DNA from: Clostridia bacterium
GTDB taxonomy: Bacteria; Bacillota; Peptococcia; DRI-13; SM3-B62
DNA length: 56,713 bases
NCBI GenBank assembly: GCA_018433675.1
Contig: JAHDQS010000050.1
Span: forward strand, 1-56,713
Reading direction: 5' to 3'
In this document: positions 23,253 to 28,331 of the stretch, in pieces
How positions within the stretch are numbered: the stretch's first letter is position 1
How the letters are laid out: each line of letters begins with the position of its first letter
The notes under the pieces: generated by a model
Seen by the model: only the letters and a program-made list of their open reading frames with translations
Database searches by the model: none
What the model was told of the DNA's origin: nothing
Position numbers and translations under genes: made by a program

Positions 23253-23295
23253 GCTTCTTGCGGGATTAAAAAATGTATTAATTAATACGAAAAAG

Positions 23296-23324
23296 TTGCA
23301 AAATAGGTTTAATGGGCGTATAAT
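23296..23324 (+). promoter_or_regulatory. Sigma-70-type promoter of the MqsR-like/Panacea module
   Basis: TTGCAA at 23296 and TATAAT at 23319 are separated by 17 bases, a near-consensus vegetative promoter. Transcription would begin about 20-25 bases before the toxin-like gene. AT-rich sequence overlaps the -35, as expected where an antitoxin binds. Confidence 0.75.
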
Positions 23325-23355
23325 AAGGTTAAACTATAGATAAGGAGTGTATTAT

Positions 23356-23781
23356 TTGAGTTCAAAAAAGCAGAATACTCATAAGCTCCTTGATTTCACA
23401 CCGGATGAGATTAAAGATTATTTAGATGAATTTAGAAAATGTATTCTTGAAGGTAGATATTCAATTTCTCAAAATGAACATAGACAAGAGAATATAGACT
23501 TTATTGAAGATTACAAGGTTGATACAAAGAAAGAACACGAAATATTATTGGGTTTACAGTTTGATGATTTTTGTTATGCAGTCAAAAACGATAATATCGA
23601 TTTTGCTCATGAAGTGTTATATATCTTTTGCAAGCAACATGAACTAGATTTTTGGGGTACCTTAGAGATCGTTGATATATATATAAAAGTGAACATGATT
23701 GAAACGAGAAGAGAGGATTTGTTCTCAGTTGTTGTTTCGTTTCACAAAAGGAACTTTGAAATTACGTATTTGTTCAGATAG
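23356..23781 (+). CDS. MqsR-like toxin candidate
   Basis: 141-aa protein directly upstream of an MqsA/Panacea antitoxin. The C-terminal half reads ILLGLQFDDFCYAVKNDN, then VDIYIKVNMIE and VVVSFHKRN. This parallels E. coli MqsR (a GLS-x-DFYKSM segment, then the V-Y-x-K-I strand and VSFK end), a RelE-fold mRNA endonuclease. The likeness is by eye. The first 50 residues have no match that I know. TTG 23356 has AAGGAG eight bases upstream, and the open frame reaches GTG 23347. Coding is AT-rich, unlike the trehalose operon before it. Expected role: translation block released when the antitoxin is lost. Confidence 0.6.
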   Translation: MSSKKQNTHKLLDFTPDEIKDYLDEFRKCILEGRYSISQNEHRQENIDFIEDYKVDTKKEHEILLGLQFDDFCYAVKNDNIDFAHEVLYIFCKQHELDFWGTLEIVDIYIKVNMIETRREDLFSVVVSFHKRNFEITYLFR

Positions 23782-23822
23782 ATTGTTGTGGTGATTGGTT
23801 GCTAAAAAAAGGAGGAAATAAA

Positions 23823-24821
23823 ATGAAAGGGTTTTGCGAGAAATGCCGCGATACCGTTGAGTACACCGTAAAAATGGTTGATAAGGAAAAAACAATTAAA
23901 GGAAGAACGACTAAATATGTTGGTAAAGCAGCTTACTGCGATAAATGTAAAGAAGAGATATTTATACCAGAAGTTAGAGACTTTAATTTAAGGGCACTTG
24001 ATGTTTCATACAGAGAAGCTGAAAACTTGATTAAAGTAGAAGACATCGAGAAGGTTTTAGAGAAATATGATATTGGGAAAAGACCGTTATCCTTATTGCT
24101 TGGATGGGGCGAGGGAACATTAACCAGATATATTGATGGTGATACACCAACAAAACCTTATTCCGATATACTTAAGCGAATTCTTGAGGATAGGAATTAT
24201 TATCAGGATATCTTGGAAAAAAACAAAGGTAACATTTCGCCTGTTGCTTTTCGTAAAAGCATGGAAGCCGTTGAAGGGATCAACACAGCAACCGGAAACG
24301 AAATAAGCAAAATTGAATCAGCTGTAAAATATTTATTAATGCAAACATCAGAGATTACTCCTCTTGCCCTGCAAAAATTATTGTATTTTGCTCAGGGATT
24401 TCAGAAGGCTTTTACTGACGCATTTATGTTTGAAGAAGATTGTGAAGCTTGGGTGCACGGTCCTGTATATCGCAATGTTTATAATAAGTACAACGGTTAT
24501 GGATACAACCCGATTGAAGAAAAAGAGTTATCTCATGAGGGTATCAATTTGACAGAAGACGAAAAAGAGTTGCTTGATCACATTGTTTCATACTTTGGAT
24601 GTTATAGCGGAAAAATCCTCGAGAATATGACGCACTCAGAAGAACCTTGGCGAGTGGCCAGACGAGGCTTAGGGGACTGGGAAAACTCTGACAGGGTTAT
24701 TGAAAAGATAGAGATAGAGTCCTACTTCAATAGCGTTAAAGAGAAATACAAAATGTTAAATCTTACTGACATTAAAGATTACTCTCAAGACTTATTTAGT
24801 AAGCTGTATTGTTTGCGTTAG
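23823..24821 (+). CDS. MqsA-type zinc finger/HTH plus Panacea (DUF4065) antitoxin fusion
   Basis: 333 aa with three parts. Residues 1-45 form a YgiT/MqsA-like zinc finger with two Cys-x2-Cys pairs (FCEKCRD and YCDKCKE). Residues ~50-140 resemble an Xre/MqsA HTH: a long helical region with LSLLLGWGEGTLTRYIDGDT. Residues ~160-333 are a Panacea/SocA-like domain: KYLLMQTSEITPLALQKLLY, then FAQGFQKAF, CEAWVHGPVYRNVY and HSEEPWRVARRG. Panacea domains neutralise unrelated toxins and are swapped among TA partners. AGGAGG precedes the ATG. It follows the MqsR-like gene in the order toxin-antitoxin, as in mqsRA. Zinc finger and HTH probably autoregulate the promoter at 23296. Confidence 0.85.
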   Translation: MKGFCEKCRDTVEYTVKMVDKEKTIKGRTTKYVGKAAYCDKCKEEIFIPEVRDFNLRALDVSYREAENLIKVEDIEKVLEKYDIGKRPLSLLLGWGEGTLTRYIDGDTPTKPYSDILKRILEDRNYYQDILEKNKGNISPVAFRKSMEAVEGINTATGNEISKIESAVKYLLMQTSEITPLALQKLLYFAQGFQKAFTDAFMFEEDCEAWVHGPVYRNVYNKYNGYGYNPIEEKELSHEGINLTEDEKELLDHIVSYFGCYSGKILENMTHSEEPWRVARRGLGDWENSDRVIEKIEIESYFNSVKEKYKMLNLTDIKDYSQDLFSKLYCLR

Positions 24822-25909: not shown

Positions 25910-26389
25910 ATGGAAAAATATACGGTTGCAGATGCAAAAAACAATTTCCCTAAATTGCGCCGGTTAGCTGCCCAAGGTAATGAATTTATTGTTGTTGACC
26001 ATAAACGCGCTGAAGCTGTTCCTGTTTCAGTTATCGCTACAGAGCTACTTGATAGAATCACAAATGAAGCTTTGGCTAATCTTACCTACGAATGGCTTAA
26101 TAAGCCTGGTGACGTTATAAATGGTAATGAGGTTAACAATACATGGAATCTCTGGAACCATCAACTTAAAATCGGTGGTTTAGGCCTTTCAAAAGAAGAA
26201 GCCATTAGCAGTTTGGCTGAGGATGCTATAAATTATGCTAATGAGTATTTTGATGATTTGGTTTTCTTCTTAAATCCTAAGTCAGGGAGAGATGGTCACT
26301 ATTGGGTTCTGAGAGGTATAAAACGTTGTGATGACAATCTTGCTAAGGCGATAGAGGTTATGAGGTTGTCCAGGCTTTTGGAGGAGTGA
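25910..26389 (+). CDS. Phd/YefM-type antitoxin with HicB-like C-terminal domain
   Basis: 159 aa. Residues 1-50 match Phd/YefM antitoxins: YTVADAKNNFPKLRRLA, then EFIVVDHKRAEAVPVSVI, which binds DNA as a dimer. The second part (GLGLSKEEAISSLAEDAINY, then ANEYFDDLVFFL) has the spacing of a HicB-type domain. The combination is found as a single antitoxin protein in Firmicutes. ATG 25910 is preferred because GGGAGG lies just upstream; the frame is open to 25895. Its stop is followed within a few bases by a short ORF with an unusual hairpin instead of a recognisable toxin. Confidence 0.75.
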   Translation: MEKYTVADAKNNFPKLRRLAAQGNEFIVVDHKRAEAVPVSVIATELLDRITNEALANLTYEWLNKPGDVINGNEVNNTWNLWNHQLKIGGLGLSKEEAISSLAEDAINYANEYFDDLVFFLNPKSGRDGHYWVLRGIKRCDDNLAKAIEVMRLSRLLEE

Positions 26390-26391
26390 GA

Positions 26392-26619
26392 ATGGGTTTC
26401 GCATTTGATTGGAAAGAAACAGACGAACTGTATCGTTTTAAATATAGCACGTATTTCTTTACAAATAAAGAAATACGTGCTATATTTAAAAAGGCACTGA
26501 CCAGGTGGGTAAAATGCTTAGAACTGGGGATGGTAATTTTAATAAAGGAGCAAAGTTCTTTGGTTTTAAGTAAAAACGAGATGAAAGTAAAAAAGGGTGA
26601 TTACAATGAAGGCCTTTAA
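26392..26619 (+). CDS. Unrecognised small ORF, possible toxin remnant, containing a perfect hairpin
   Basis: 75 codons starting at ATG 26392 (GTG 26386 also possible, overlapping the antitoxin stop). The protein begins MGFAFDWKETDELYRFKYST and then crosses a perfect 56-base inverted repeat. It matches no toxin family that I know. It occupies the place where the partner of the Phd/HicB-like antitoxin should stand, so it may be a truncated or rearranged toxin. GAGGAG lies before it. The last residues run over the ribosome site of the next gene, which suggests that the reading frame is not original at its end. Confidence 0.35.
   Translation: MGFAFDWKETDELYRFKYSTYFFTNKEIRAIFKKALTRWVKCLELGMVILIKEQSSLVLSKNEMKVKKGDYNEGL
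26436..26491. repeat. Perfect 26-bp inverted repeat with 4-base loop
   Basis: Bases 26436-26461 are the exact reverse complement of 26466-26491, with CAAA as loop. The stem is AT-rich with a central GCACG/CGTGC block and contains no T-run after it. In RNA it would form a very stable hairpin inside the small ORF. It could be a miniature palindromic element, a processing site, or an inverted duplication left by a rearrangement. Confidence 0.9.
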
Positions 26620-27373
26620 TGAATTGGCGAAGATACCTGTATTTTCTATCAAGGATGTTGACAGGTTGACGGGGAATCTCAAAACAGCATATTCTTTGCT
26701 TAATCGCTTGATGAAAAAAAATTTGGTTAGAAAGATCAGAAGGAATATATACTCATGTGTGAATCCGGTGACCGGCCAGTTAGTAGCAACTCGATACCAG
26801 ATAGCATGTGCGGTTACAGATACTGCCTACATCTCACATCATAGTGCTTTTGAGTATTATGGCCTTGCAAATCAAGTGTACTGTGAAGTATACGTATCTT
26901 CCGAGACCAAGTTTCGAGAGTTTGAATATGATTATGTGTTCTTCAAATACATCACTTCAAGAATGGAGGCTGGGGTTGTAGAAGCAAAGAATACGACTGG
27001 GGTGCGGATAACGGATATGGAAAGAACGGTTATCGACAGTATCAGGGATTTTGAGAAAATTGGGGGATTTGAAGAGCTTCTTAATTGTCTAAAAGGAATA
27101 TATTACTTAGATGAAAATAAGCTTAAAAAGTATTTGGAAATCTATAACACTCAGGCACTATATCAAAAGACTGGATTATTACTTCAGCAGTACAGAAAAG
27201 AAATGCAACTTTCTCAAGACTTTATCGATTATTGTAAAGGGAAAATAGGAAAGAGCACAAGATATTTGTTAAGAGAAACTTATAAAGATAATAGCTATAA
27301 TAGCGAGTGGAAACTGATGGTGCCAAAAGGGCTATTTGATATAATGAATCAGGATGGTGATGTGCTTGTCTAA
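26606..27373 (+). CDS. abiEi: AbiEi-family antitoxin / transcriptional regulator
   Basis: 255 aa. The N-terminal winged helix (FSIKDVDRLTGNLKTAYSLL, LMKKNLVRKIRRNIY) is followed by the typical AbiEi core (ATRYQIACAV, AYISHHSAFEYYGL, GVRITDMERTVIDSI). AbiEi represses the operon and counters AbiEii in a type IV toxin-antitoxin system that can cause abortive phage infection. ATG 26606 is chosen over GTG 26597; AAAGGG precedes it. The stop at 27371-27373 lies inside the start region of the toxin gene, so the two are translationally coupled. Antitoxin function follows from the family and from the neighbour. Confidence 0.88.
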   Translation: MKAFNELAKIPVFSIKDVDRLTGNLKTAYSLLNRLMKKNLVRKIRRNIYSCVNPVTGQLVATRYQIACAVTDTAYISHHSAFEYYGLANQVYCEVYVSSETKFREFEYDYVFFKYITSRMEAGVVEAKNTTGVRITDMERTVIDSIRDFEKIGGFEELLNCLKGIYYLDENKLKKYLEIYNTQALYQKTGLLLQQYRKEMQLSQDFIDYCKGKIGKSTRYLLRETYKDNSYNSEWKLMVPKGLFDIMNQDGDVLV

Positions 27374-28331
27374 TTATGACGTTATCTATTTAGGAAAAAG
27401 AGCACAAGAATTAGGTTTCGTAAGGGATACATTGGAGAAAGCAACTAGGATAGCGGATATCTTAGAGTATTTGAATACAAACCCAATACTAAAAAAAAGC
27501 CTTGCTTTAAAGGGCGGGACGGCAATTAATCTCACAATTTTTAATTTGCCTCGTTTATCGGTGGATATTGATATGGACTACTTAATTTCAAGTAGTAGAG
27601 AAGAGATGCTTACGAATCGGGAAGGGATTAACAGTTTGGTTGATCGTTACATGGTATCACAGGGATATACAAAAAGTCCCAAGACGAAAACACCCCACAG
27701 TTTGGATTCATGGGTGTATGATTATGTTAGTGCTGGTGGCAACAAAGAAAATATTAAAGTTGAAATCAATTACTCTCTTCGGTCTCATATACTGCCCGCA
27801 GAGGAACGGCCAATTATTACAGAATATTTTTCCGGTGAGTACAAAGTGAAATCTCTAGCTCCTATTGAGATTTATGCCAGTAAGATTAATGCATTACTCA
27901 ATAGAGCTGCAGCCAGGGATTTATACGATGCTAAAAACATGATTAAATTTGGTATATTTGATGAATCTGAAGAAGAGATGCTAAGGAAATGTGTCATTTT
28001 CTATGCCGCGATATCTGCAAAGGATATTAATAAGACCTTTGAAACAAAGGCAATTGACTCAATAACAAAGAGGAAGATTAAAATAGGTCTTCTACCGGTA
28101 ATAAAGAGACGGGATGATTTTGACTTGGATTCAGCAAAGAAAATAGTCAAGGATTACATTTCTGGTTTGATGGTTCTTACAGAGAAGGAGAAAGAATTTC
28201 TAGAGAAGTTTGAAAGTGGTGAATACATTCCAGAACTGCTATTTAACGATCCTGAAATATTAGCTAGGATTAAAGATCATCCGATGGCCCTATGGAAGAC
28301 TAGGCAAACCAGAGGGAAGATTAGTGAATAA
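27354..28331 (+). CDS. abiEii: AbiEii nucleotidyltransferase toxin
   Basis: 325 aa. The DNA polymerase beta-like nucleotidyltransferase motif is intact: LKGGTAINL with Gly54-Gly55-Thr56, then LSVDIDMDY with Asp71 and Asp73. A later IKVEINYS supplies the third acid, and VKSLAPIEIYASKINALLNR followed by RDLYDAKNM is the usual second motif. Family toxins transfer nucleotides to tRNA or another target and stop growth. Several starts are possible (ATG 27354, ATG 27360, TTG 27366), all overlapping abiEi. Complete in contrast to the decayed AbiE-like pair at 12.7-13.8 kb, which belongs to a different subfamily. Confidence 0.88.
   Translation: MVMCLSNYDVIYLGKRAQELGFVRDTLEKATRIADILEYLNTNPILKKSLALKGGTAINLTIFNLPRLSVDIDMDYLISSSREEMLTNREGINSLVDRYMVSQGYTKSPKTKTPHSLDSWVYDYVSAGGNKENIKVEINYSLRSHILPAEERPIITEYFSGEYKVKSLAPIEIYASKINALLNRAAARDLYDAKNMIKFGIFDESEEEMLRKCVIFYAAISAKDINKTFETKAIDSITKRKIKIGLLPVIKRRDDFDLDSAKKIVKDYISGLMVLTEKEKEFLEKFESGEYIPELLFNDPEILARIKDHPMALWKTRQTRGKISE

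What the first reader, a model, noticed from the sequence alone, without database searches (positions are those of the whole stretch)
23296..24821. MqsR-like toxin with an MqsA-zinc-finger/HTH-Panacea antitoxin
The antitoxin joins an MqsA-type zinc finger and HTH to a Panacea domain, a hyper-promiscuous neutralising module. Its partner only faintly resembles MqsR, with an unmatched 50-residue N-terminal part. Order toxin-antitoxin and a near-consensus promoter fit a working module. The system cuts the trehalose operon from its glucokinase and is AT-rich, consistent with recent arrival.
Basis: partly seen in the sequence, partly recalled or inferred. Interest (0 to 1): 0.7.

Follow-up and report, generated by a model that had tools for sequence, protein, structure and literature searches.

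The report
MqsR-like toxin with MqsA-Panacea antitoxin
This is a bacterial toxin-antitoxin gene pair: a divergent relative of the RNA-cutting toxin MqsR, held in check by an antitoxin whose three-part design (zinc domain, DNA-binding domain, Panacea domain) was already described and tested in 2023, so it is a sound new member of a known kind rather than something unprecedented.

Summary
The pair is real and under strong purifying selection. The antitoxin (23823-24818) has an MqsA-type zinc domain (four invariant Cys), an HTH and a Panacea domain (PF13274, 1.5e-21). The toxin (23356-23778, TTG start, 141 aa) matches no Pfam, NCBIfam or PADLOC model. Its AlphaFold2 model (pLDDT 89.7) aligns with all 97 residues of E. 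coli MqsR 3hi2_B (Z 11.1, rmsd 2.4; next match Z 5.5) from residue 9 on, so there is no unmatched 50-residue N-terminus. Catalytic Tyr81 of MqsR corresponds to Tyr109 (85/85 homologues); essential Lys56 is never Lys (His 57, Tyr 28). In all 102 loci retrieved with the toxin it is followed by a zinc-HTH(-Panacea) antitoxin. A palindrome, TGyAyyAATTrrTrCA (window 23275-23288), lies 5' of the -35 in 82 of 83 copies, a likely autoregulatory operator. 'Recent arrival' is not supported: the sister species has the pair at the same site. Toxin-antitoxin contact could not be read from the model. What is new: the toxin subfamily, its changed active site and its operator.

The parts
23275..23288 (.). palindrome GTATTAATTAATAC, candidate operator just 5' of the -35 box
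   Evidence: perfect 7+7 inverted repeat; same element (consensus TGyAyyAATTrrTrCA) in 82 of 83 homologous upstream regions, typically 50-80 nt before the toxin start, against 0.5% of shuffled regions; the second copy of the system in this genome has it too
23296..23324 (+). promoter-like TTGCAA-17-TATAAT
   Evidence: TATAAT-like box at the same place in homologues
23342..23347 (+). ribosome-binding site AAGGAG of the toxin, 8 nt before TTG
   Evidence: sequence
23356..23781 (+). toxin, 141 aa, divergent MqsR fold
   Evidence: AlphaFold2 model pLDDT 89.7; MqsR 3hi2_B Z 11.1 over 97/97 residues; phrog_34059 1.3e-16, unknown function
23680..23682 (+). Tyr109 codon, equivalent of catalytic Tyr81 of E. 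coli MqsR
   Evidence: alignments A3/A6, 85 of 85 homologues
23743..23745 (+). His130 codon, at the place of MqsR Lys96
   Evidence: 85 of 85 homologues
23810..23815 (+). ribosome-binding site AGGAGG of the antitoxin
   Evidence: sequence
23823..24821 (+). antitoxin, 332 aa: zinc domain + HTH + Panacea
23823..24020 (+). MqsA-type zinc-binding domain, residues 1-66, Cys5, Cys8, Cys39, Cys42
   Evidence: the four Cys invariant in the 9-row alignment and CxxC...CxxC in 99 of 99 antitoxins; homologue's model matches MqsA 3gn5, Z 9.3
24021..24242 (+). HTH domain, about residues 67-140
   Evidence: TIGR03830 match 5-130; homologue's model matches HigA2 5jaa_B Z 11.3 and MqsA-C 3fmy Z 9.2
24369..24650 (+). 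Panacea (SocA/DUF4065) domain with HGPV motif
   Evidence: PF13274 81.7 bits at these coordinates; HGPV in 97 of 99 antitoxins

Best explanation
It is an autoregulated type II toxin-antitoxin operon of the MqsR:PanA kind. The toxin is a divergent MqsR-fold ribonuclease (inferred from fold and the conserved Tyr109) that would stop translation by cutting mRNA when free. The antitoxin holds it with its N-terminal zinc domain (inferred from the published B. fungorum system and from MqsRA), dimerises and binds the palindrome 5' of the -35 with its HTH to repress the operon (inferred from the conserved palindrome and promoter), and the C-terminal Panacea domain most likely reads an unknown trigger, possibly phage-related, that frees or activates the toxin (hypothesis of Ernits et al. 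2023, not tested here). Shown here: fold match, catalytic Tyr, zinc ligands, domain make-up, strict pairing, conserved palindrome and promoter, purifying selection. Not shown: toxicity, RNase activity, binding, DNA binding, trigger.
For: Toxin model aligns to MqsR 3hi2_B with Z 11.1, 97/97 residues, next Z 5.5. Bridging toxins L135 and L137 score at the Pfam MqsR threshold (25.6 and 26.4 bits, cut-off 26.2), match the profile of this family (22-30 bits) and stand before zinc-HTH-Panacea antitoxins. Tyr109 and Lys111 invariant, as Tyr81/Lys83 of MqsR. Antitoxin domains and four zinc Cys; profile match of the antitoxin to E. coli MqsA, E 2.6e-6, 108 columns. Every one of the 102 loci retrieved has toxin then zinc-HTH antitoxin, Panacea also wherever the contig does not end first. 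Palindrome in 82 of 83 loci. dN/dS about 0.1 for both genes against L012. Broken genes are of the expected kind: toxin broken with intact antitoxin in L027, L028 (= L006), L029, L054, L062, L071, while the two split antitoxins, L019 and L083, keep the zinc domain. Published: same architecture, zinc domain necessary and sufficient, catalytic Tyr97.
Against: No direct sequence hit of the toxin to PF15723; hhalign of the family to E. coli MqsR alone is weak (E 0.024, probability 2%); plain Foldseek listed no match with E <= 0.001 and MqsR was not among its top 50 rows, the match came from realigning its candidates. Lys56, essential in E. coli MqsR (PMC9636575), is His or Tyr in all 85 sequences of the alignment. 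The toxin-antitoxin interface was not seen; co-variation between the two proteins was uninformative. The palindrome differs from the one upstream of E. coli mqsR.
Confidence: 0.85

Rival explanations
1. The toxin keeps the MqsR fold but works with another chemistry or target: the invariant His130 and Glu86 serve as a His/Glu pair as in other microbial RNases, or it is not an mRNase at all.
For: Lys56 lost in all 85 sequences, His130 85/85 and Glu86 84/85; E. coli MqsR is described as lacking the usual catalytic His and Glu.
Against: Catalytic Tyr109 is invariant, and His at the Lys96 place is also found in MqsR-type toxins such as L103 and L137, so part of the change is not special to this group.
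Confidence: 0.3
2. Panacea itself neutralises the toxin by direct binding, as in stand-alone PanA antitoxins; the zinc domain is only structural.
For: Panacea is intact, with the HGPV motif in 97 of 99 antitoxins, and stand-alone Panacea neutralises other toxins.
Against: In the published system of the same architecture the zinc domain alone neutralises and Panacea does not; two natural antitoxin genes here are split so that the zinc part and Panacea are apart.
Confidence: 0.1
3. A decayed or silent remnant of a mobile element, kept by chance.
For: Low GC, patchy spread, presence in viral contigs and plasmids; some relatives have broken toxins.
Against: Both frames intact, dN/dS about 0.1, conserved operator and promoter, same site kept in the sister species.
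Confidence: 0.05

Closest known systems
Bacillus fungorum MqsR(D2):PanA, Ernits et al. 2023 (PMC10440598)
   Same: MqsR toxin with an antitoxin made of MqsA-type zinc domain, HTH and C-terminal Panacea; catalytic Tyr
   Different: The sequence of that toxin could not be fetched here, so whether it belongs to this subfamily or to the Pfam-like MqsR type is open; no operator described in the passages read
E. coli MqsR:MqsA (3hi2, 3gn5)
   Same: toxin fold over its whole length, Tyr81/Lys83, toxin-first order, zinc domain with four Cys, HTH
   Different: no Panacea domain; Lys56 replaced by His/Tyr and Lys96 by His; toxin 141 instead of 98 aa; palindrome TGyAyyAATTrrTrCA instead of AACCTTTTAGGTT seen upstream of E. 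coli mqsR
PanAT systems, Kurata et al. 2022 (PMC8832971)
   Same: Panacea antitoxin with GPV motif, two-gene operon; a PanA-associated MqsR from Herbaspirillum frisingense was toxic in E. coli
   Different: PanA as a group swaps toxins; this lineage keeps one toxin family; the commoner PanA order is antitoxin first
phrog_34059 / phrog_10390 (PHROGs v4)
   Same: family models of this toxin (1.3e-16) and this antitoxin (1.3e-75)
   Different: both carry no function in that library; the evidence here suggests one

Membership tests
MqsR toxin | MqsR/RelE-type fold over the whole protein | tested here: met
   Z 11.1, rmsd 2.4, 97/97 residues of 3hi2_B, next match Z 5.5
MqsR toxin | catalytic Tyr81 | tested here: met
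   Tyr109, 85/85
MqsR toxin | catalytic Lys56 | tested here: not met
   His 57, Tyr 28 of 85; the clear Pfam member L103 also lacks Lys there in the alignment (Glu)
MqsR toxin | score over the Pfam PF15723 cut-off | tested here: not met
   no match up to E 10; own genome without PF15723 match
MqsR toxin | cleaves mRNA at GC, ribosome-independent | not testable with these tools
   needs enzyme assay
PanA (Panacea) antitoxin | Panacea domain over Pfam cut-off with GPV motif | tested here: met
   77.8 bits, cut-off 25.7; HGPV at residues 212-215
PanA (Panacea) antitoxin | adjacent toxin gene in a two-gene operon | tested here: met
   all 102 toxin loci; in the reverse search 16 of the 20 strongest antitoxin loci have the toxin
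MqsA antitoxin | zinc domain with four Cys, HTH behind it | tested here: met
   Cys5, 8, 39, 42; homologue model to 3gn5 Z 9.3; hhalign to MqsA E 2.6e-6
MqsA antitoxin | score over curated cut-offs (PF15731 30, TIGR03830 61.8) | tested here: not met
   19.5 and 57.5 bits
type II toxin-antitoxin | direct toxin-antitoxin protein contact | tested here: inconclusive
   read-through model of L023 gave good domains (pLDDT 90.3) but pTM 0.62 and no readable interface
type II toxin-antitoxin | toxin stops growth, antitoxin rescues | not testable with these tools
   needs growth assay

The most novel reading that the evidence does not exclude
This toxin subfamily, widespread in Firmicutes and unassigned in the libraries searched, uses a different active site from E. 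coli MqsR (Tyr109, His130 and Glu86, no Lys56) and is tied to one zinc-HTH-Panacea antitoxin with its own operator; Panacea there is a trigger sensor and not a partner-swapping neutraliser, so comparing its 100-odd copies could reveal what Panacea senses.
Probability: 0.3. Interest if true: 0.5.

Novelty: new member of a known kind. Interest (0 to 1): 0.3.

Why it matters
It suggests a function for two families that PHROGs lists as unknown, extends the MqsR fold to a group that PF15723 misses, gives a testable active-site change, and supplies a conserved candidate operator for MqsA-Panacea antitoxins. The open question about Panacea (neutraliser or sensor) becomes easier to test in a lineage where toxin and antitoxin do not swap partners.

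Tried and rejected
Plain phmmer of the toxin against the PDB found only chance-like matches to ankyrin-repeat designs. Plain Foldseek of the toxin model gave nothing significant; only realignment of its candidates showed MqsR. BLASTP of the toxin against E. coli MqsR: only short chance pieces. Mutual information between toxin and antitoxin columns (83 pairs, 48 effective) was dominated by a few clade-marking columns and did not favour the zinc domain; not used. Empty site: the only held genome of the same genus also carries the pair and more distant relatives have kinases only up to about 40% identical, so an insertion could not be shown. Stop codons at similar places in toxins L054, L062, L071 looked like recoding at first; they are different codons (TAA, TGA, TAG) at different residues, so ordinary inactivation. 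tblastn of the toxin in the phage record collection: no match. Whether the B. fungorum toxin of the paper belongs to this subfamily could not be settled: its accession is in a supplement that could not be read. Searches failed for a one-base error in the antitoxin's start coordinate and were repeated.

Full report
What is there. The window holds two genes on the + strand between a sugar-phosphate operon and a ROK-family kinase: a 141-aa protein (23356-23781, TTG start 8 nt after AAGGAG) and a 332-aa protein (23823-24821, ATG after AGGAGG), 41 nt apart. Neighbours upstream are a GT20/trehalose-phosphatase fusion, a GH65 enzyme and a HAD hydrolase of the beta-phosphoglucomutase type; downstream the ROK kinase. 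The pair is AT-rich (GC 0.30 and 0.37 against 0.52-0.53 in the two flanking genes).

Antitoxin. Residues 5-130 match TIGR03830 (MqsA family, 57.5 bits, just under the cut-off 61.8) and weakly PF15731; residues 183-276 match Panacea PF13274 well over its cut-off. Four Cys (5, 8, 39, 42) are invariant in the 9-row alignment and CxxC...CxxC is present in 99 of 99 antitoxins; HGPV is present in 97. In MqsA the zinc is held by Cys3, 6, 37, 40 (PMC2791442). Profile comparison with E. coli MqsA gives E 2.6e-6 over 108 columns. In the model of a homologue, residues 163-291 match MqsA 3gn5 (Z 9.3) and the HTH matches HigA2 (Z 11.3).

Toxin. No Pfam, NCBIfam or PADLOC model matches; phrog_34059 of unknown function does. 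With 85 sequences AlphaFold2 gives a confident model (pLDDT 89.7, pTM 0.84). Realignment of Foldseek's candidates puts E. coli MqsR 3hi2_B first with Z 11.1, rmsd 2.4, all 97 residues of MqsR aligned to residues 9-131; the next match is at Z 5.5, and ranks 3 and 4 are a toxin-antitoxin complex and BrnT. Foldseek's own ranking had no significant match, so the assignment rests on the realignment, on sequence bridges and on the partner. The bridges: toxins L135 and L137 reach about the Pfam MqsR cut-off (25.6, 26.4; cut-off 26.2), match the profile of this family (22.4, 30.5 bits) and stand before zinc-HTH-Panacea antitoxins. L103, a clear Pfam MqsR (76.5 bits), also does.

Active site. In E. coli MqsR Lys56 and Tyr81 are strictly required for cleavage (PMC9636575) and K56, Q68, Y81, K96 matter for toxicity (PMC2791442). 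Here Tyr81 is Tyr109 and Lys83 is Lys111, both 85/85; Lys96 is His130, 85/85; Lys56 is His (57) or Tyr (28), never Lys; Glu86 is 84/85. His at the Lys96 position is also found in other MqsR-type toxins, so the feature that marks this group is the lost Lys56. The Gln68 place was not assigned with confidence. The catalytic residue of the published B. fungorum toxin is Tyr97; L135's equivalent Tyr also falls at 97 when that open frame is counted from its first codon, which may be coincidence.

Conservation and spread. A scan of 84,980 genomes confirmed 112 relatives, mostly Firmicutes, of which 80 loci were kept; 12 viral contigs and 4 plasmids (one at 58%, three at 32-37% identity) have it. In every one of 102 loci (about 94 distinct places) the toxin is followed by a zinc-HTH antitoxin on the same strand, with Panacea wherever the contig is long enough. 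In the reverse direction 16 of the 20 strongest antitoxin loci in a phylum-wide draw have the toxin, one ends at a contig edge and three show none. Both genes are under purifying selection (window against L012: dN 0.079, dS 0.861 for the toxin; 0.094, 0.944 for the antitoxin). Toxins broken by stops or frameshifts with an intact antitoxin occur in six distinct loci (L027, L028 = L006, L029, L054, L062, L071); the two split antitoxins, L019 and L083, keep the zinc domain whole and lose the in-frame link to Panacea. The genome has a second, diverged pair (toxin 38%, antitoxin 50%) on contig 57.

Operator. A perfect palindrome GTATTAATTAATAC lies at 23275-23288, 7 nt before the -35. Upstream regions of homologues carry the same element, consensus TGyAyyAATTrrTrCA: 81 of 83 score 14 or more of 16 and 82 score 13 or more, against 0.5% and about 4.5% of shuffled regions; the figure '82 of 83' elsewhere in this report uses the 13-or-more level. 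The consensus was read off these sequences, so the comparison is not blind, but the size of the effect and the fixed place leave little doubt. The second copy in this genome has it as well, and the more distant MqsR-Panacea loci L131, L135, L137 and L105 have palindromes with a related core. E. coli mqsR has another palindrome, AACCTTTTAGGTT. I read this as the site of autorepression by the HTH; DNA binding was not tested.

How it works. Shown: fold, catalytic Tyr, zinc ligands, domains, pairing, palindrome, promoter, selection. Inferred: mRNA cleavage, neutralisation by the zinc domain, autorepression at the palindrome. Hypothesis from the literature: Panacea as sensor of an unknown trigger. 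The published dissection of the B. fungorum MqsR:PanA pair found that isolated zinc domain or zinc-HTH neutralises while Panacea alone or HTH-Panacea does not (PMC10440598). A read-through model of toxin plus antitoxin of L023 (toxin about 65% identical; its stop read as glycine) gave well-folded domains but pTM 0.62, and its coordinates could not be inspected, so contact remains untested.

Arrival. The only held genome of the same genus has the pair at the same site. Nucleotide identity to it is 92-93% for the upstream genes, 98.4% toxin, 96.7% antitoxin, 96.6% kinase, 97.9% the next gene. The pair therefore predates that split or came with its downstream flank; recent arrival is not shown, foreign origin is plausible from composition.

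Verdict. A sound toxin-antitoxin pair of a published kind, with a toxin subfamily that the curated models miss, a changed active site and a conserved candidate operator. New member of a known kind.

Noticed in passing
window 26597-28331: AbiEi/AbiEii pair (PADLOC 6.6e-103 and 1.2e-121) a little downstream, so two toxin-antitoxin or defence modules sit within 5 kb.
   Followed up: partly
window 25910-26619: PHD_like antitoxin (PF12910, 1.9e-21) followed by an overlapping 77-aa frame without a family match; no recognisable toxin in any of the three frames.
   Followed up: partly
G000:C57:36822-38260 (locus L002): Second, diverged copy of the same pair in this genome, both frames intact, with its own operator-like palindrome.
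   Followed up: yes
G000:C57:39713-39726 (locus L163, 1501-1514): A further operator-like palindrome about 29 nt before a 285-aa HNH-nuclease-like gene, next to a group II intron type reverse transcriptase; one or two chance matches per genome are expected.
   Followed up: no
L131, L135, L137, L105: Pfam-like MqsR toxins with zinc-HTH-Panacea antitoxins have palindromes of a related core (ATCAAWT), suggesting one operator type across MqsA-Panacea antitoxins.
   Followed up: partly
window 23356 and homologues L011-L024, L091-L093, L102: Toxins of the window's clade start with TTG almost throughout, those of the other clade mostly with ATG, while the window's antitoxin has ATG and a stronger ribosome-binding site.
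   Followed up: no
model of L023, residues 327-493: The Panacea domain of the homologue aligned weakly to DarG of DarTG (7yk3_B, Z 6.8, 122 residues), below the level that can be trusted.
   Followed up: no
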